Source of the DNA: Mycolicibacter virginiensis
GTDB taxonomy: Bacteria; Actinomycetota; Actinomycetes; Mycobacteriales; Mycobacteriaceae
DNA length: 64,000 nucleotides
NCBI RefSeq assembly: GCF_022374935.2
Contig: NZ_CP092430.2
Coordinates: forward strand, 3,038,001 to 3,102,000
Direction of reading: 5' to 3'
Shown one piece after another: positions 35,629 to 42,987 of this stretch. The position numbers were made by a program, and so were the translations under genes. The first letter of the stretch is position 1, and every line of letters starts with the position of its first letter. Under the pieces are notes generated by a model, which did not search any database, was not told the DNA's origin, and saw only the letters and a list, made by a program, of their open reading frames with translations.

Positions 35629-35676
35629 ATGAAGATATTTTCAATTGATGCTTTCACTGCTATGGTCTGCGCTGTG
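35629..35676 (+). promoter_or_regulatory. arsR promoter and possible ArsR operator
   Basis: TATGGT (35661-35666) ends 7 bases before GTG 35674, with a weak TTTTCA at -35 spacing (35638-35643). The AT-rich segment ATGAAGATATTTTCAA (35629-35644) contains a TGAA...TTCA inverted repeat of ArsR/SmtB-operator type. Confidence 0.4.
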
Positions 35677-36003
35677 CCGAACTCGCTCCATCAGGTGAAA
35701 GCCGAGTTCTTCAAGACCCTCGGGCACCCCGCCCGGATCCGGATCCTGGAGCTGCTCTCCGAACGCGACCACACCGTCGGCGAGTTGCTCCCCGAGATCG
35801 GCCTCGAGGCATCGAACCTGTCCCAACAACTGGGTGTCTTGCGTCGTGCGGGCGTGGTGACAGCGGCCAAGGACGGCAATGCGGTGGTCTACTCGATCGC
35901 CTCGCCGGTGATCGCCGAACTGCTCGCCGTGGCGCGCAAGGCGCTGGCCGGATTGCTCAACGAACAAGTGGCCATCCTCGATGACCTGCGAGCCGGGCAA
36001 TGA
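35674..36003 (+). CDS. ArsR-family regulator (Rv0081-like)
   Basis: About 109 residues forming a winged helix: KAEFFKTLGHPARIRILELL, HTVGELLPEIGLEASNLSQQ, LGVLRRAGVVTAAKDGNAVV. No metal-binding Cys pair is present in the recognition or C-terminal helices, as in Rv0081, so it is unlikely to be a classic metal sensor. In M. tuberculosis Rv0081 is a hypoxia-response regulator that precedes the same hyc-like genes. GTG at 35674 is preferred as a leaderless start; ATG at 35662 overlaps the -10 box. The stop overlaps the next start (ATGA). Confidence 0.88.
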   Translation: MPNSLHQVKAEFFKTLGHPARIRILELLSERDHTVGELLPEIGLEASNLSQQLGVLRRAGVVTAAKDGNAVVYSIASPVIAELLAVARKALAGLLNEQVAILDDLRAGQ

Positions 36004-36479
36004 GCTGGCTCACCAGAATCCGTGCCCTGGGCCGTGTCACCGAGCCTGCCGGCGCCCGTCCACCGACCGCCACCGAACCGCCGGGAGGCGTGACGGGCTC
36101 GCTGCAGATCCGCCACGTCGACGCCGGATCGTGCAATGGCTGCGAGATCGAGATCGCCGGGGCTTTCAGCCCGGTGTACGACGCCGAGCGATTCGGCGCC
36201 CGGCTCGTCGCCTCCCCGCGTCACGCCGACGCCCTGCTGGTCACCGGCGTGGTCACCCGCAACATGGCCGAGCCGCTGCGCAACACCCTGGAGGCCACCC
36301 CGCAGCCTCGCAAAGTCATCGCGTGCGGGGACTGTGCCCTCAACCGCGGGGTGTTCGCGCAGTCGTACGCAACGGTGGGGGCCGTCGGCGAGGTGGTTCC
36401 GGTCGATGTCGAGATCCCCGGCTGCCCACCGACCCCCGAGCAGATCCTCGACGCGCTGCGGTCGGTGACCGGCCGGTGA
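36000..36479 (+). CDS. NuoB/HycG-like iron-sulfur subunit (Rv0082-like)
   Basis: 159 residues. Homologue of the small [4Fe-4S] subunit of complex I and group 4 hydrogenases. The cluster ligands are visible: C45-x2-C48 in DAGSCNGCEIEI, C109 (with C112) in VIACGDCALNRG and C142 in IPGCPPTPEQIL. It should hold the cluster next to the large subunit's former active site. Overlaps on both sides (ATGA with arsR, GTGA with the next gene) show one operon. Confidence 0.88.
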   Translation: MSWLTRIRALGRVTEPAGARPPTATEPPGGVTGSLQIRHVDAGSCNGCEIEIAGAFSPVYDAERFGARLVASPRHADALLVTGVVTRNMAEPLRNTLEATPQPRKVIACGDCALNRGVFAQSYATVGAVGEVVPVDVEIPGCPPTPEQILDALRSVTGR

Positions 36480-38431
36480 GCACGCTGACGGTTTCGACCC
36501 CCGACACATCGCACCACCAAGCGCTTCCAGCGGCCCTCAGCGGTATCGCCACGACCGGTATCGGTGCCGCCGGAGTCGGCATCGGCCTGGCCGGCGTGTT
36601 CGGCACCGTGCCCGCGATTCGCATCGACTGGCTGGTGCCGCTGCTGGGTGTACAGCTGCGCATCGATCCGCTCGGCGGGTTCTTCATGGCGCTGACCGGT
36701 GCGGTGGCCGTGGCCGCTGGCCTGTACTGGATCGGCTATGCACGCCACGAGCGCTACGGTGCGGTCCCACTGCTGACGCTGCCGCTGTTCGTCGCCACGT
36801 TGCTGACGGTTCCGGCGGCAGGCTCGGTAACGACGTTCCTGCTTGCATGGGAACTGATGGCGCTGGCGTCGCTGGTGTTGGTGCTCACCGATCAACAGCG
36901 CAGCGAGGTGCGTTCGGCCGCATTGATCTACGCGGTGATGACCCAGTTGGGCTTCGTTTCGCTGCTGTTGGGCATGGTGGTGCTGGCAGCCCACGTCGGC
37001 GACGACTTCGCCGCCATGGGCGTGCTGCCCGACCGCGTGCGCGACATGGTGTTCGTGTTGACCCTGATCGGCTTCGGTTCCAAAGCCGGACTCATGCCCC
37101 TGCACGCGTGGCTGCCCAGGGCGCACCCGGAAGCCCCCAGCCCGGTCTCGGCGTTGCTCAGCGCCGCCATGGTCAACCTCGGCATCTACGGGATCATCCG
37201 TGTTGACATGCAGCTGCTCGGTCCCGGCCCACGGTGGTGGGGTCTGACGCTGCTGATCGCCGGAGGCGCATCGGCGCTCTACGGAGTGTTACAGGCGTCG
37301 GTGGCGACCGACCTCAAACGGCTGCTTGCGTATTCGACGACGGAGAACATCGGGCTGATCACCCTGGCCCTGGGTGCGGCGACGTTGTTGTCGGGCGCGG
37401 GATCGCGCGATGCCGCGGCCGTTGCAGGGGTCGCGGCGCTGCTGCATCTGCTCGCCCACAGTGCGTTCAAGAGCCTCGGATTCCTGGCCGCCGGATCGGT
37501 ACTGGCCGCCACCGGCTTGCGCGACCTGGATCGACTCGGCGGGCTGGCCCGCCGAATGCCCGGTACCACAGCGTTGTTCGGCGTGGCCGCGCTCGGCGCC
37601 GCCGGCCTGCCGTTGGGGGCGGGTTTCATCAGCGAATGGCTGTTGATCCAGTCGCTGATGCATGCCCGAGCCGACCATGACGTCACGATCACCCTGGTGA
37701 CACCACTGGCCGTGGGTGCGATCGCACTGACCGCCGGCCTGGGGGTGGCCGCCATGGTCAAGGCGTTCGGTATCGGGTTCCTGGCCCGCCCACGCTCGGA
37801 TGCCGCAGCGGCGGCCCGGGAAGCGCCCACCACCATGCTCACCGGGATGACCCTGGCCGCACTCGCCTGCCTGGTGCTGGCCGTCGCACCGGCCGCCGTC
37901 GGCCCGCTGTTGCACCGGGTGCTCGACATCCTGCCCGTGTCGGGGGCAGCCCCGCAGATCGGAACCTACCTGCGCATTCCCGGGCTAGACGCGTCCATGT
38001 CCCCCGGCCTGCTGACCGCCGTTCTGGCCGTCGCGGTCGTGGTGGTGCTGATCGGTTCCCGCTGGCGGGCACGTGTGCGCCCCAGCACTGCCACGGTGCC
38101 GCTGTGGGCCTGCGGCGCAGACGATCTGAGCCCGCGCATGCAATACACCGCGACGTCGTTCGCCCAACCGCTACAGCAGGTCTTCGACGATGTGTTACAC
38201 GCCGACACCGCAGTCGAAGTGACCCGCCAAGCTCCGTCGAGCTACTACGTGGACCGGATCGCCTACCGGGCGCGGGTGGCCGACGTCGTCGAAGACCGCT
38301 GGTATGCCCCGCTGCTGCGGGGTGTCGCCGGCGCCGCGCAGCTGGTGCGCCGCGCCCACACCGGCAGCGTGCACCTCTACCTGGCCTACGGTGCGGTGGG
38401 AGTGCTGATCGCCATGTTGGTGGCGCGATGA
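36476..38431 (+). CDS. HyfB/NuoL-like membrane antiporter subunit (Rv0083-like)
   Basis: 651 residues, about 16 transmembrane helices, of the proton-translocating NuoL/M/N-MrpA/D family. The channel Glu lies in WELMALASLVLV; the conserved Lys/His helix is FGSKAGLMPLHAWLPRAHPE; a second Lys is in ATDLKRLLAYSTTENIG. These ion-path residues are kept, so transport should work. The GTG start at 36476 overlaps the previous stop. A longer open frame from 35981 is rejected because it overlaps two real genes. Confidence 0.9.
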   Translation: MSTLTVSTPDTSHHQALPAALSGIATTGIGAAGVGIGLAGVFGTVPAIRIDWLVPLLGVQLRIDPLGGFFMALTGAVAVAAGLYWIGYARHERYGAVPLLTLPLFVATLLTVPAAGSVTTFLLAWELMALASLVLVLTDQQRSEVRSAALIYAVMTQLGFVSLLLGMVVLAAHVGDDFAAMGVLPDRVRDMVFVLTLIGFGSKAGLMPLHAWLPRAHPEAPSPVSALLSAAMVNLGIYGIIRVDMQLLGPGPRWWGLTLLIAGGASALYGVLQASVATDLKRLLAYSTTENIGLITLALGAATLLSGAGSRDAAAVAGVAALLHLLAHSAFKSLGFLAAGSVLAATGLRDLDRLGGLARRMPGTTALFGVAALGAAGLPLGAGFISEWLLIQSLMHARADHDVTITLVTPLAVGAIALTAGLGVAAMVKAFGIGFLARPRSDAAAAAREAPTTMLTGMTLAALACLVLAVAPAAVGPLLHRVLDILPVSGAAPQIGTYLRIPGLDASMSPGLLTAVLAVAVVVVLIGSRWRARVRPSTATVPLWACGADDLSPRMQYTATSFAQPLQQVFDDVLHADTAVEVTRQAPSSYYVDRIAYRARVADVVEDRWYAPLLRGVAGAAQLVRRAHTGSVHLYLAYGAVGVLIAMLVAR

Positions 38432-39390
38432 CCGCACTGACATACCTGGCGGGTTTCGTGCAGGTCGCCGGCGTCATCGCAGGCGCCCCATTGGTCATCG
38501 GCCTGATGCGCCAGGTCCGAGCCCGCGCCGAGGGCCGCACCGGGGCCGGAATCTGGCAACCGTGGCGTGACATCCGCAAACTGCTGGGCAAGCAGAACCT
38601 CAAACCGCTCGGCACCACCTGGGTGTTCGCCGCGGCGCCGGCCGCGTTGGCCGCCACCACGCTGGTCATCGTCGCCACCGCGCCCCTGGTGGCGACCGGC
38701 TCGCCGCTGGACCCGGTCGCCGACCTGATTACCGTTGTGGGCCTGCTGTTCCTGGGCACAGTGGCCCTGACCTTGGCCGGCATCGACACCGCAACGGCCT
38801 TCGGCGGCATGGGCGCCAGCCGTGAGATCACCATCGCGGCGCTGGTGGAACCGACCATCCTGGTGGCGGTGTTCGCCCTGTCGATTCCCGCGAACTCGGC
38901 AAATCTGGGCGCCATCGTCGGCAACACCAACGCGCATCCGGGCCAAGTGATCTCGCTGGCGAGCGCGCTGGCGTTCGTCGCGCTGGTCATCGTGATCGTC
39001 GCCGAGACCGGCCGGCTGCCGGTGGACAACCCGTCCACCCACCTGGAGCTGACCATGGTGCACGAGGCCATGGTGCTCGAATATGCCGGCCCCAAGCTGG
39101 CCATGGTCGAATGGGCCAGCGGCATGCGGCTGACGGTGTTGCTGGCGCTGCTGGCAAACCTGTTCTTTCCGTGGGGCATCGCGGGCGCGGACCCCAGCGC
39201 GCTCGAGGTGATCGTCGGCGCCGGCGCGATCGCGCTCAAAGTGGCGGTGTTGGCCGCAATCATGGCCACCGTGGAGGTCTTCCTCGCCAAGCTGCGGCTG
39301 TTTCGGGTGCCAGAACTACTCGCTGGGTCCTTCGTGCTGGCGCTGCTGGCCGTGACGGCGGCGAACTTCTTCACGGGAGCGGCGGGATGA
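38428..39390 (+). CDS. hycD: HycD/HyfC (NuoH-like) membrane subunit
   Basis: 320 residues, about eight helices, corresponding to Rv0084. NuoH-type subunits connect the peripheral iron-sulfur arm to the ion pumps. Marks are [20 protein letters not shown] near the N-terminus and the charged loop [20 protein letters not shown] followed by MVHEAM. Starts with ATGA overlap on the previous gene. Confidence 0.93.
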
Positions 39391-40043
39391 CCTACGTCAA
39401 CATGCTGGACCTGGCTGCCGGCGGTGTCCTGCTGGCCGCGGTACTGGCGGTATGGCACCGCGACCTGTCGGTGGTGGTGCGTCGGTTGCTCGTCGCCCAA
39501 GGCGTGGCGCTGGCCGCCATCCCGGTGATTCGCGGTGTACACGAGCATGATCGAGCCCTGCTGTTGGTCGGCCTCGGCGTGCTGGCGGTCCGCGCGGTAT
39601 TGCTGCCGTGGCTGCTACAGCGGGCGCTGGGCGCCGAACGCCAAGAACGCCGTGAGTCCGCTCCCCTGGTCAGCACGACCGCCTCCCTGCTGATGGTCAC
39701 CGCACTGGTGGTCGCGGCGTTCACCATCGCCCAACCGGTGGTCGCGCTGGCTCCCAGTACCTCGACCAACGCCGCCCCGGCGGCCATCGCAACGGTGCTG
39801 ATCGCGCTGTTCATCATGGCGACCCGCCGCCACGCCATCTCACAGACGGTCGGCTTGCTGATGCTGGACAACGGAATCGCTGCGACCGCGTTCCTGCTGA
39901 CCGCCGGCGTCCCGCTGATCGTCGAACTCGGCGCTTCCCTGGATGTGCTGTTCGTGCTGATCGTGCTCGGAGTGCTGACCGGACAGCTGCGCAACGCCTT
40001 CGGCGGGGTGGACCTGGACCTGTTGCGGGAGCTCCGCGACTGA
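39387..40043 (+). CDS. hycP: HycP/HyfE-like membrane subunit
   Basis: 218 residues with about seven helices, in the HyfE/NuoK-related family (Rv0085). Its second half ([20 protein letters not shown]) carries the conserved Glu/Asp-bearing segment of this family, here with Asp. Overlaps neighbours by ATGA (start) and TGATG (end). Confidence 0.88.
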
Positions 40044-41509
40044 TGACACTTCTGATTGCGCTTCCACTGCTGGCACCGGTGTTGGCAGCACTGTGCTCGG
40101 CGATGCTCGGCTGGCGCCGGTTCGGTTCCGCCGTCACGGTGATGTCTGCGCTGACCATCTTGGGATGCGGTGTCGCCTTGGCCGTACGGATCGGCGACGG
40201 GACCCAACTGGCGCTGAATGGCCTGTTGCGGGCCGATGCACTGTCGGTGACGATGCTGATTGTCATCGGTGTCGTCGGCAGCCTGGCCACCTGGGCGAGC
40301 ATCGGCTACGTCGACGCCGAGTTGGCTTGTGGACACACCGATGAACGCGGCGCACGGTTGTACGGCATCCTGACTCCGGCGTTCTTGGCAGCGATGGCTC
40401 TTGCGGTGTCGGCCAACAACATCGGCGTGGTGTGGATCGCGGTGGAAGCCACCACGGTAGTCACCGCGTTTCTGGTCGGGCACCGCCGCAGCCGGGCCGC
40501 CCTGGAGGCCACCTGGAAATACGTCATGGTGTGTTCGGTGGGCATCACAATCGCGTTCCTGGGCACCGTGTTACTGCATTTCGCCGCGCTGCATGCCGGA
40601 GCGGGCGCTGAGGACGCGCTGGACCTCGACGTGCTGGCCGCCCATGCCAGTGGGCTCGACCCGGCGGTGACCCGTTTGGCGGGCGCGCTGCTGTTGATCG
40701 GCTACGGAGCCAAGATGGGCTTGGCACCGTTTCACACCTGGCTCGCCGATGCGCACAGTCAAGCCCCGGCTCCTGTTTCGGCGTTGATGAGCGGGGTGCT
40801 GCTGTCCGTCGCGTTCTCGGTGCTGATCCGGATCAAGCCGATCATCGATGCCGCGGTGGGTCCGGCGTTTCTGCGGACGGCACTGCTGGCCGCCGGTTTG
40901 GTGACACTGCTGATCGCTGCGCTGCTGCTCACCATCACGACCGATCTCAAACGGATGCTGGCCTATTCATCGATGGAGACGATGGGCCTGATCGCCGTCG
41001 CCGCGGCGGCGGGCACCCAGCTGGCGATCACCGCGCTGCTGCTGCACGTCCTTGCTCACGGTGTCGGCAAGACGGTGCTGTTCCTCGCCGGCGGGCAGTT
41101 GCAGGCCGCCCACGGCACCACCGCGATCGGCGAGATCTCTGCGGTGTTCGGGAGGTCACGGTTGGTCGGTGGCGCGTTCGCCGCCGGGATGGTGGTCCTG
41201 CTCGGTTTGCCGCCGTTTGCCATGTTCGCCAGCGAGGTGGCGATCGCGATCTCGCTGGCCGACGCGCGTCTGGCGTGGGCCCTCGGTCTGGCACTGGTGG
41301 CGCTGGTGGTGGCGTTCGCCGCCCTGCTGCGCAATTCCGGCCGGCTGCTGCTGGGCACCCCGGACGCCGGTACCCCGCCGATCCGGGTACCGGTAACGGT
41401 TGCGGGCGCGCTGGTGATCGGGGTGCTGCTCTCGTTCGCCCTAGGAGTGACCGCCGGCCCGCTGACCGACTTGTTCGAGGCCGCCGCAAGCCAACTCGGA
41501 GTCCGCTGA
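40043..41509 (+). CDS. hycQ: HycQ/HyfF-like antiporter subunit
   Basis: 488 residues (length as I recall for Rv0086), about 14 helices, a second NuoL/M/N-type pump subunit. VWIAVEATTVVTAFLVG holds the channel Glu; GAKMGLAPFHTWLADAHSQA the Lys/His helix; TTDLKRMLAYSSMETMGLIA the second Lys. Start and stop overlap both neighbours by one base (TGATG). Confidence 0.92.
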   Translation: MTLLIALPLLAPVLAALCSAMLGWRRFGSAVTVMSALTILGCGVALAVRIGDGTQLALNGLLRADALSVTMLIVIGVVGSLATWASIGYVDAELACGHTDERGARLYGILTPAFLAAMALAVSANNIGVVWIAVEATTVVTAFLVGHRRSRAALEATWKYVMVCSVGITIAFLGTVLLHFAALHAGAGAEDALDLDVLAAHASGLDPAVTRLAGALLLIGYGAKMGLAPFHTWLADAHSQAPAPVSALMSGVLLSVAFSVLIRIKPIIDAAVGPAFLRTALLAAGLVTLLIAALLLTITTDLKRMLAYSSMETMGLIAVAAAAGTQLAITALLLHVLAHGVGKTVLFLAGGQLQAAHGTTAIGEISAVFGRSRLVGGAFAAGMVVLLGLPPFAMFASEVAIAISLADARLAWALGLALVALVVAFAALLRNSGRLLLGTPDAGTPPIRVPVTVAGALVIGVLLSFALGVTAGPLTDLFEAAASQLGVR

Positions 41510-42987
41510 TGGAGCCGATCACCAGCACCCAGCCGGTCACCGGCGATGAGTTGATCGATGCGGCCACGGCTCTGCTGGCCGACGGGTTCCGGCTGGCACT
41601 GATGGCCGCTCACGATGACGGCGACACCCTGCGGGTGGTGTACCTGTTCCTCGCCGGCCGCCCGGATCGCCGCAGGGAGCTGACCCTGACGGTTCCGGCG
41701 GACGCCCCGGCGATCCCCTCGCTGGCCCGGCTGTCTTTTCAGGCCGGCCGATTCGAGCGCGAGATGCTCGATCTGTACGGCATCACCCCGGTCGATCATC
41801 CGCAGCCGCGCCGCCTGGTACGGCACGCGCATTGGCCAGAGGATTGGCATCCGATGCGCAACGATGCCGGGCCGCCCGGCGACTTCGTTGCGGCGGACCA
41901 CTTTCCCTTCCTGACCGTGGACGGCGCCGGGGTCTACGAGATCCCCGTCGGCCCGGTACACGCCGGTCTGATCGAGCCGGGTCATTTCCGGTTCTCGGTG
42001 GTCGGCGAATCGGTGTTGCGACTCAAGGCGCGACTGTGGTTCGTCCACCGCGGGGTCGAGCGACTCTTTCAAGGCCGGCCCGCCCTCGCGGCGGTGGACC
42101 TGGCCGAACGGGTCAGCGGCGACACGTCTGCCGGTCACGCGCTCGCACACAGCCTGGCCGTCGAGGACGCTCTCGGTGTCCAGCTGCCCGATCCGGTGCA
42201 CCGGCTGCGCGCACTGCTCGTCGAGCTCGAGCGCCTCTACAACCATGCCGCCGATCTGGGTGCCCTGGCCAACGATGTGGGATTCGGCTTGGCCAACGCA
42301 CACGCCCAGCGCGTCCGCGAACTGGCGCTGCGCATCAACGCGGAAGTGACCGGACACCGACTGTTGCGCGGGGCGATCAGCCCCGGAGGTGTCGTGCTGC
42401 AAGCACTTCCGGACCCGGACCGGCTACAAGAGCTGGCTGATGACACCGCCGAGATCGCCGAGCTGACGTTGGGCAACTCGGTGATCTATGACCGGTTCGC
42501 CGGCACCTCGATATTGCACCGCGACGACGCCGTCGCCATGGGTGCGCTGGGCTACGTGGCTCGGGCCAGCGGGATTGTCACCGACGCCCGCCTCGACCAC
42601 CCGACCACCGAGCTACCGGTGACCGAGGTAACGGCGAGCACCGGGGATGTACTGGCCCGCTACACCGTTCGCCGCGACGAGTTCGCGGCCTCGGTGACCC
42701 TGTGCCGCAACCTGATCGACAGTCACGACGGCCCGCTCGATTTCCGGGCGCCCATTCCGGCGGCGACGGGCCCGCGTAGCGGGATCGGCATCGTCGAGGG
42801 CTGGCGCGGCAGCATCGTGCACCGGGTGGAGATCGGAGCCGACGCCATCATCGGCCGCGCCAAGATCGTGGATCCGTCCTGGTTCAACTGGCCGGCGCTG
42901 CCGGTATCGATGACCGACACCATTGTCCCGGACTTCCCGCTGACGAATAAGAGCTTCAATCTGTCCTACGCGGGAAACGATCTATAG
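41509..42987 (+). CDS. hycE: HycE-like large subunit lacking all NiFe cysteines
   Basis: 492 residues (as Rv0087). The first ~135 residues are the NuoC-like domain (SFQAGRFEREMLDLYGITP); the rest is the NuoD/[NiFe]-large-subunit domain (GPVHAGLIEPGHFRFSVVGE, ELERLYNHAADLGALANDVG). Hydrogenases bind nickel with two C-x2-C motifs. Here the first, normally R-V-C-G-I-C, reads R-V-S203-G-D-T206, and the C-terminal D-P-C-x2-C region reads N-L-S486-Y-A-G489-N-D-L. All four Cys are gone, so no NiFe centre can form. The protein is more like a quinone-site NuoD. Last gene of the operon. Confidence 0.93.
   Translation: MEPITSTQPVTGDELIDAATALLADGFRLALMAAHDDGDTLRVVYLFLAGRPDRRRELTLTVPADAPAIPSLARLSFQAGRFEREMLDLYGITPVDHPQPRRLVRHAHWPEDWHPMRNDAGPPGDFVAADHFPFLTVDGAGVYEIPVGPVHAGLIEPGHFRFSVVGESVLRLKARLWFVHRGVERLFQGRPALAAVDLAERVSGDTSAGHALAHSLAVEDALGVQLPDPVHRLRALLVELERLYNHAADLGALANDVGFGLANAHAQRVRELALRINAEVTGHRLLRGAISPGGVVLQALPDPDRLQELADDTAEIAELTLGNSVIYDRFAGTSILHRDDAVAMGALGYVARASGIVTDARLDHPTTELPVTEVTASTGDVLARYTVRRDEFAASVTLCRNLIDSHDGPLDFRAPIPAATGPRSGIGIVEGWRGSIVHRVEIGADAIIGRAKIVDPSWFNWPALPVSMTDTIVPDFPLTNKSFNLSYAGNDL

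What the first reader, a model, noticed from the sequence alone, without database searches (positions are those of the whole stretch)
36000..42987. A complete hydrogenase-4-like membrane complex without a hydrogenase active site
Six overlapping genes encode a small FeS subunit, two antiporter-type pumps, NuoH-like and HyfE-like subunits, and a NuoC-NuoD-type large subunit. In the large subunit both nickel motifs are gone: R-V-C-G-I-C is R-V-S203-G-D-T206, and the C-terminal Cys pair is S486/G489. The small subunit keeps its cluster cysteines and the pumps keep their Lys/Glu path. No maturation genes (hyp), formate dehydrogenase or ferredoxin-type subunit are nearby. The block therefore looks like an energy-converting-hydrogenase-related (Ehr-type) ion pump whose electron donor and acceptor are unknown, although the family is still labelled hydrogenase or formate hydrogenlyase.
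Basis: partly seen in the sequence, partly recalled or inferred. Interest (0 to 1): 0.75.

Follow-up and report, generated by a model that had tools for sequence, protein, structure and literature searches.

The report
Hydrogenase-like pump without nickel site
A mycobacterial operon usually labelled "formate hydrogenlyase" encodes a membrane proton-pump-like complex that cannot make or use hydrogen the known way; it is a known kind (Ehr), but its emptied active site is strictly conserved, it carries its own switch, and in some relatives it sits next to a dedicated carbon-metabolism enzyme.

Summary
Window 36000-42987 (+) encodes six overlapping genes: small FeS subunit, HyfB-, HycD/NuoH-, HyfE- and HyfF-like subunits, and a NuoC-D/HycE-like large subunit. 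All four nickel cysteines of the large subunit are gone (S203, T206, S486, G489); its only Cys is C399, so none is displaced. Searches of the genome found no other PF00374 large subunit, no HypD and no TIGR01701 formate dehydrogenase, so "formate hydrogenlyase" fails on both halves. In print the tuberculosis-complex homologue is already called an EHR complex and not a hydrogenase (PMC6728331), so the core claim is not new. What I add: the emptied site is a conserved signature (SGD[TS] ... SYAGNDL at the C-terminus, no maturation tail) in 79 actinobacterial loci; in 30 carrier genomes 22 of 23 operator sites lie at this operon; formate dehydrogenase is not enriched in carriers; in a minority of loci from several genera the cassette is followed by a second ArsR gene, a malic-enzyme-derived protein and an extra PEP carboxykinase. 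Most likely a redox-linked ion pump; donor and acceptor are unproven.

The parts
35630..35649 (+). Putative ArsR operator TGAAGATATTTTCAATTGAT
   Evidence: Pattern TGAWRAN4TTCA in 39 of 67 upstream regions (window included), shuffles mean 0.025, max 2; the longer pattern in 30 whole carrier genomes, chosen by me, gives 23 sites, 22 of them 5.87-6.0 kb upstream of the large-subunit gene. Binding not shown
35662..36003 (+). ArsR-family regulator gene (Rv0081-like; name recalled), no Cys pair for metal
   Evidence: HTH_5 and NF033788 for the translation from 35674; an ArsR gene lies upstream of the small subunit on the same strand in 66 of 72 loci
36000..36479 (+). Small FeS subunit (HycG/MbhJ/NuoB-like), CxxC...C...C
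   Evidence: MbhJ 6cfw_J E 2.7e-36 and HycG 7z0s_G E 8.3e-35; C45, C48, C112, C142 conserved
36476..38431 (+). Antiporter-like subunit, HyfB/HycC-like
   Evidence: NF005086 hydrogenase 4 subunit B E 4.3e-165, below its cut-off; E126, K203, K281, K332 conserved
38428..39390 (+). NuoH/HycD-like subunit
   Evidence: NADHdh E 6.7e-38; seven Glu (E35, E141, E193, E207, E213, E218, E228) among the residues at least 97% conserved in 76 loci
39387..40043 (+). HyfE-like membrane subunit
   Evidence: NF008556 E 4.6e-15, below its cut-off; no Pfam hit
40043..41509 (+). Antiporter-like subunit, HyfF-like
   Evidence: NF005044 E 2.9e-97, below its cut-off; E135, K224, K303, K343 conserved
41509..42987 (+). 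Large subunit, NuoC-NuoD/HycE-like, 492 aa, one Cys
   Evidence: HycE 7z0s_E E 6.1e-52
42109..42126 (+). Codons 201-206 RVSGDT at the place of RVCGIC
   Evidence: S203 77 of 79 (Ala in L085, L086), G204 and D205 79 of 79, T206 T in 72 and S in 7
42964..42984 (+). Codons 486-492 SYAGNDL at the place of CYSCTDR; protein ends here, no maturation tail
   Evidence: S486 78 of 79, A488 77 of 79, Y487, G489, N490, D491, L492 79 of 79; tail length 0 in 79 of 79

Best explanation
An Ehr-type (energy-converting-hydrogenase-related) membrane complex, switched by its own ArsR regulator. Electrons pass through one N2-like [4Fe-4S] cluster of the small subunit, delivered by a soluble low-potential partner (most likely a ferredoxin: inferred, not shown), to or from a small molecule other than H2 in the emptied nickel pocket lined by S203, D205, T206, S486, N490 and D491. 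Turnover there moves the HycD/NuoH-like subunit and drives the two antiporter-like subunits (inferred from complex I and group 4 hydrogenases). Shown by sequence: subunit make-up, loss of all Ni ligands with a conserved replacement, intact pump residues, no HypD and no TIGR01701 in this genome, a linked ArsR gene and a conserved operator-like site. Not shown: redox activity, pumping, donor, acceptor, direction, ArsR binding.
For: Subunits and order S-B-D-E-F-L in 72 of 79 named loci; 6 of the 7 exceptions begin at the edge of the held DNA. Ni ligands replaced by a near-invariant signature with no tail in 79 loci. Single Cys. Pump residues. The only PF00374 match in the genome is this gene; no HypD; no TIGR01701. 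Among 158 mycobacterial genomes HypD is no commoner in carriers (37 of 50) than in non-carriers (79 of 108), and 13 carriers lack it. ArsR upstream in 66 of 72 loci; operator-like site.
Against: None of the listings I saw named biochemistry for this class. The complex lacks the FeS input subunits that group 4 hydrogenases and complex I use, so electron entry is a guess; a CxxCxxCxxxC motif was seen in 2 of 79 loci, 4-6 kb away, and not in the window. Two of the three Nqo4 quinone-site residues are absent. The operator pattern is missing in 28 of 67 upstream regions and in 8 of 30 carrier genomes.
Confidence: 0.7

Rival explanations
1. It is a working formate hydrogenlyase or hydrogenase, as annotated.
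For: Homology to HycE, HycG and Hyf subunits and hypoxia-linked expression of the tuberculosis homologue (PMC2799521, passage).
Against: All four ligands absent, one Cys in the protein, no HypD, no TIGR01701, no other PF00374 large subunit. Carriers have TIGR01701 less often (15 of 50) than non-carriers (72 of 108, not corrected for phylogeny).
Confidence: 0.02
2. A ferredoxin- or protein-driven quinone reductase that works like complex I with the nickel pocket as quinone site.
For: Large subunit matches NuoD families and Nqo4; D256, the counterpart of Nqo4 D139, is 79 of 79.
Against: Counterparts of Nqo4 H38 and Y87 are I155 (78 of 79, one Val) and G204 (79 of 79); the hydrogenase-type Glu E156 is kept in 73 of 79. 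Small subunit has CxxC, not the tandem CC of the genome's own NuoB.
Confidence: 0.3
3. A non-redox ion transporter or antiporter in which the hydrogenase-like arm is a vestigial or regulatory cap.
For: No electron-input subunit seen; antiporter residues intact.
Against: The four cluster cysteines of the small subunit stay at least 97% conserved in 72 loci and the former nickel site is near-invariant in 79, which a vestige would not need.
Confidence: 0.1
4. A decaying relic after loss of nickel chemistry.
For: Single carriers look broken: G031 has an in-frame stop in the large-subunit gene; L077 (M. genavense) holds only the last two genes although 8.5 kb upstream are held; G036 and G361 have the gene split between contigs, which may be assembly.
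Against: 157 of 492 positions conserved in at least 77 of 79 loci across Actinomycetota; operon order kept in 72 of 79.
Confidence: 0.03

Closest known systems
Ehr (energy-converting hydrogenase-related) complexes, including the M. tuberculosis Rv0081-Rv0087 (hyc) locus
   Same: Group 4 hydrogenase and complex I architecture, Mrp-like antiporter subunits, no Ni-binding residues (definition read in passages of PMC6349859, PMC10284858, PMC6728331)
   Different: The Ehr loci of PMC6349859 are proposed to pair with a formate dehydrogenase; none is linked here and carriers are not enriched for TIGR01701. This class has its own signature SGD[TS]...SYAGNDL and a linked ArsR gene. I did not fetch the M. 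tuberculosis sequence itself
E. coli hydrogenase-4 / formate hydrogenlyase (HycE, HycG; 7z0s)
   Same: Large and small subunit homology and Hyf-like membrane subunits
   Different: No Ni ligands, no C-terminal tail, no ferredoxin-like subunit found, no TIGR01701, no HypD
Pyrococcus membrane-bound hydrogenase (6cfw) and its relatives Mbx/MBS
   Same: MbhJ is the best solved match of the small subunit, MbhL the second of the large
   Different: Mbh keeps the Ni ligands; MBS reduces sulfane sulfur (recalled); no NuoI-like subunit found here
Respiratory complex I (own genome's Nuo)
   Same: NuoB-, NuoC-D-, NuoH- and NuoL/M-like parts
   Different: No NADH module, CxxC in place of tandem CC in the small subunit, two of three quinone-site residues absent
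   Same: Nearest Cys-bearing group in the tree; same NKSF.L.YA..D C-terminus and no tail
   Different: Keeps RACxAC and CY[AS]CxDR

Membership tests
[NiFe] hydrogenase, group 4 / formate hydrogenlyase | Two CxxC pairs that bind Ni-Fe | tested here: not met
   RVSGDT and SYAG; single Cys; no CxxC in 79 of 79 relatives
[NiFe] hydrogenase, group 4 / formate hydrogenlyase | Hyp maturation genes in the genome | tested here: not met
   No HypD (PF01924) in G000; 4 of 14 control genomes ring, E. coli among them. Other Hyp genes not searched
[NiFe] hydrogenase, group 4 / formate hydrogenlyase | C-terminal maturation tail cut off by a peptidase | tested here: not met
   0 of 79 have a residue after L492; four FHL-type relatives have 33-36. 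Some true hydrogenases lack it too (recalled)
[NiFe] hydrogenase, group 4 / formate hydrogenlyase | Formate dehydrogenase partner and ferredoxin-like subunits | tested here: not met
   No TIGR01701 match in G000 at E <= 1e-100 (other formate dehydrogenase families not searched); CxxCxxCxxxC motif nowhere in the window and in 2 of 79 loci, distant
Ehr complex | Relative of group 4 large subunit that lacks the Ni/Fe-coordinating residues | tested here: met
Ehr complex | Mrp antiporter-like membrane subunits with intact ion path | tested here: met
Ehr complex | Couples a cytoplasmic redox reaction to ion translocation | not testable with these tools
   Needs biochemistry; suspected, not shown, for the family (PMC6349859 passage)
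Complex I (Nuo/Fpo type) | Quinone-site His and Tyr of NuoD | tested here: not met
   Nqo4 H38 to I155, Y87 to G204 in the alignment; roles recalled
Complex I (Nuo/Fpo type) | Electron-input module and NuoI | tested here: not met
   None in the operon or among eight flanking genes; no ferredoxin motif in the window
Membrane-bound sulfane reductase (MBS/Mbx) | Sulfane sulfur reduction at the small-subunit cluster | not tested
   Recalled; no sequence comparison with MBS was made

The most novel reading that the evidence does not exclude
This Ehr class is the membrane pump of a CO2-linked PEP/oxaloacetate/malate module. In a minority of loci from several genera the cassette is followed on the same strand by a second ArsR gene, a malic-enzyme-derived protein with no Pfam match, and an extra, distinct GTP-PEP carboxykinase. 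The pump would either use reductant and proton-motive force to feed this node in hypoxia or dispose of reductant through it; the emptied nickel pocket would then handle a carbon acid, CO2/bicarbonate or a carrier tied to that node rather than H2. The window itself lacks the PEPCK part.
Probability: 0.2. Interest if true: 0.75.

Novelty: new member of a known kind. Interest (0 to 1): 0.5.

Why it matters
Close homologues of this large subunit are named hydrogenase, formate hydrogenase or NADH-quinone oxidoreductase in the sources, and such labels steer hypotheses about hypoxia and H2; the sequence says it cannot be a [NiFe] hydrogenase. No reaction is known for Ehr complexes in the passages read (PMC6728331, PMC10284858). 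A strictly conserved emptied site, a linked regulator and an extra PEPCK in some genera give concrete, testable leads to the reaction.

Tried and rejected
Formate dehydrogenase as hidden partner: not supported (15 of 50 carriers against 72 of 108 non-carriers have TIGR01701 at E <= 1e-100; Fisher p 2.8e-5 in the opposite direction; relatedness not corrected).

A partner in the ArsR regulon: the strict operator pattern found almost nothing else (22 of 23 sites at the operon in 30 genomes, which I chose from the 50 carriers; 8 of 30 had no exact site). The 23rd site (G452) lies beside pyrH with an ArsR-like start and then a run of N. Looser sites were not searched.

A DosR box in the window (consensus recalled): 0 matches with up to 3 mismatches. 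The cassette's operator before the second ArsR gene: none in 13 loci looked at; a different TTGC...GCAA repeat is seen there by eye in several (not counted or tested).

Displaced cysteines: none. Decay: rejected by conservation. Whole-class monophyly of the SGD class: weak (61/19); only the core without L114 and L115 is firm (100/97), and the number of Ni-site losses cannot be fixed.

PEPCK linkage is not universal: 9 of 68 named loci with at least 4.5 kb downstream. In the class sample (28 of 384 genomes with the cassette) I looked at the flanks of 24 of the 28 (21; window, G022 and G029; G388, G410, G446 and G657 not; G755, G479 and G615 have under 2.3 kb downstream): only G748 (broken, reversed) and G553 (upstream, reversed) showed a PEPCK. 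Outside that sample, G054 (L024) has a reversed weaker match. Linked PEPCKs are not one clade (4 changes): L108 and L168 fall elsewhere, and one unlinked G748 copy falls inside the main linked clade.

Gene calls were noisy and were replaced by tblastn. Searches failed through my coordinate errors and were rerun with right coordinates. The query was only a 333-residue part of the L128 large subunit. One search was a useless paper search (electronic health records). Rows left out before counts: truncated L112 from the tree, into which 15 of the 79 named loci went, picked by hand for spread; the PEPCK tree used 13 linked and 13 other copies, also picked by hand.

Full report
WHAT IS THERE. Pfam and NCBIfam give Oxidored_q6 (small subunit), two Proton_antipo_M proteins, NADHdh, a HyfE-like protein, and a Complex1_30kDa + Complex1_49kDa protein with a weak NiFeSe_Hases match. 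The nearest solved structures by sequence are MbhJ 6cfw and HycG 7z0s for the small subunit and HycE 7z0s for the large (E 6.1e-52). An ArsR-family gene (35662-36003) overlaps the small-subunit gene, so the operon has seven genes. It lies between a pyrH-like gene on the other strand and a MarR-family gene. Names of the closest homologues place the window in or near Mycolicibacter.

THE EMPTIED SITE. In the large subunit RVCGIC is RVSGDT (201-206) and the C-terminal pair is S486/G489; the only Cys is C399. None of the 79 has a residue after L492 or a CxxC anywhere, while four FHL-type relatives carry DPCYSCTDR and 33-36 further residues. So the protein ends about where a processed hydrogenase ends and has no tail for a maturation peptidase to cut. 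The pocket looks like a selected site, not decay. The hydrogenase-type Glu E156 is kept in 73 of 79 (6 have Gly); H159, H180, E184, D256, W432 and R433 in 79 of 79. The counterparts of Nqo4 H38, Y87 and D139 are I155, G204 and D256 (alignment; their role in quinone binding is recalled), so a complex I-type quinone site is not simply preserved.

NO HYDROGENASE MACHINERY FOUND. The genome has one match to PF00374, this gene, no HypD and no TIGR01701 formate dehydrogenase at E <= 1e-100; other Hyp and formate dehydrogenase families were not searched. Among 158 mycobacterial genomes at least 95% complete, 50 carry the large subunit at E <= 1e-100. HypD is in 37 of 50 carriers and 79 of 108 others; TIGR01701 in 15 of 50 and 72 of 108; nine carriers, this one included, have neither (relatedness not corrected). 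A ferredoxin-type motif CxxCxxCxxxC is in no frame of the window and in an open frame of 2 of 79 loci, 4-6 kb away.

INTACT PUMP AND CLUSTER. Aligned with the genome's own NuoL and NuoM, the two antiporter subunits keep the Glu and the three Lys of NuoL (E126, K203, K281, K332; E135, K224, K303, K343), at least 97% conserved over 73 and 76 loci; the small subunit keeps C45, C48, C112 and C142 over 72 loci. Its CxxC differs from the tandem CC of the own NuoB.

A CASSETTE WITH ITS OWN SWITCH. Order S-B-D-E-F-L holds in 72 of 79 named loci. Of the other seven, six (L058, L067, L078, L088, L089, L093) begin at the edge of the held DNA, and one, L077 (M. genavense), holds only the last two genes. 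An ArsR gene lies just upstream on the same strand in 66 of the 72. A dyad TGAWRAN4TTCA precedes it in 39 of 67 upstream regions, the window's included (shuffles: mean 0.025, max 2); these are all Mycobacteriaceae or Gordonia; the 28 without it are 5 mycobacteria and 23 from other groups. In 30 whole carrier genomes, chosen by me from the 50, the longer form gives 23 sites in 22 genomes, 22 of them 5.87-6.0 kb before the large-subunit gene; the reversed pattern gives one site in the 30. [quoted passage not shown] 47 of 66 ArsR proteins here have no Cys at all. PMC3087520 (passages) argued in 2009 that the hyc locus was transferred several times among Actinobacteria. The differing flanks I see fit that.

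EVOLUTION. In a tree of 44 large subunits with the trait columns removed, the window's class lies next to tail-less four-Cys proteins, five of them from named Thermoleophilia-type bacteria (class membership partly recalled), with other emptied-site classes (SGTD, SGTS, EGxA) and FHL-type proteins outside. Core support is 100/97; support with L114 and L115 is only 61/19; long branches meet at the outgroup; direction and number of nickel-site losses stay open.

A NEW LEAD: PEPCK. In 9 of 68 named loci with at least 4.5 kb downstream, a GTP-PEP carboxykinase (PF00821, 570 bits for the one scanned) follows on the same strand within 5 kb; a ~250-300 residue protein lies there in 7 of the 68, and a second ArsR gene within 2 kb in 11. 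The nine are from Mycobacterium/Mycolicibacterium (three), an Actinomycetota MAG, Nocardia, Kibdelosporangium, Kutzneria, Lentzea and Acidimicrobiaceae. Five of the ~250-300 residue proteins scanned had no Pfam match, but a profile of seven finds malic enzymes (2a9f, E 1.2e-12, profile positions 16-161). At E <= 1e-20 the family occurs in 3 of 158 mycobacterial genomes, all three carriers, with all five copies within 15 kb of the large-subunit gene, one of them with an in-frame stop, and all three have cassette - ArsR - malic-enzyme-like - PEPCK. Of 13 genomes examined for PEPCK (chosen by me), the four Mycobacterium genomes with the module (G423, G430, G466, G032) have two copies, as has G553; G748 has two whole and one broken copy; the other seven have one. 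In a tree 11 of 13 linked PEPCKs, with one unlinked copy from G748, form a clade (98/97) apart from the ten mycobacterial-family housekeeping copies (100/99); L108 and L168 do not join it. In the evenly drawn class sample the link is rare: 2 of 24 carriers looked at, both reversed, one broken. PMC3087520 also notes pckA pieces on both sides of the Nocardioides hyc locus. One paper search with PEPCK and hydrogenase terms listed four papers, none of which describes this link in its title or abstract start. I read it as a functional lead, not proof: the window's own operon lacks it.

WHAT IS KNOWN. [quoted passage not shown] PMC6349859 and PMC10284858 (passages) define Ehr by the missing Ni-Fe ligands; the first proposes formate dehydrogenase as partner in Margulisbacteria. 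PMC2799521 (passage) treats it as a putative hydrogenase. Paper searches for the locus or for Ehr were (20 of 108 shown); no title or abstract start listed names a biochemical assay of the complex, and full texts were not read for it. He 2011 is not held.

VERDICT. A new member of a known kind. The observation and the Ehr reading stand. What I add is the conserved signature, the missing tail, the genome-level absence of the partners searched for, the linked operator and the PEPCK/malic-enzyme lead.

Noticed in passing
L119, L121, L123, L126, L128 (genomes G242, G273, G168, G157, G136): Tail-less group 4-like large subunits with all four cysteines (RACxAC ... CY[AS]CxDR); 3 of the 5 genomes (G242, G273, G136) have no HypD match, so their cysteines may not hold a Ni-Fe centre.
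   Followed up: partly
L012:4912-12451 (genome G022): A close relative of the window's genome carries a second, distant Ehr-like cluster (large subunit 31% identical, RVEGIA ... LCYAGVAM).
   Followed up: partly
L154 (G452:C1:3342155): The 23rd operator site lies beside a pyrH gene with an ArsR-like start followed by a run of N, while the Ehr operon of that genome sits about 115 kb away: a relic, second copy or assembly matter at the kind of site the window's cassette occupies.
   Followed up: partly
L117, L118, L120, L127, L130: Other emptied-site classes with different residues at the same places (such as SGTD/SQGGCDG, SGTS/SNAESDR, AATT/SVSEADR, EGVA/SPAGVVV): the nickel site has been replaced in several ways.
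   Followed up: partly
L039, L051, L060, L072, L083, L160, L163 between the large-subunit gene and the second ArsR gene: A repeat of the form TTGCTAA...GCAA seen by eye before the second ArsR gene, different from the cassette's own operator.
   Followed up: no
L021 (genome G031); L077: Broken-looking carriers: an in-frame stop in the large-subunit gene of G031, and only the last two genes of the cassette at L077 (M. genavense).
   Followed up: no
L058 (Mycobacterium palustre): Besides the cassette, matches to its large subunit and to the HyfF- and HyfE-like subunits on the other strand some 6-8 kb away: a possible second copy.
   Followed up: no
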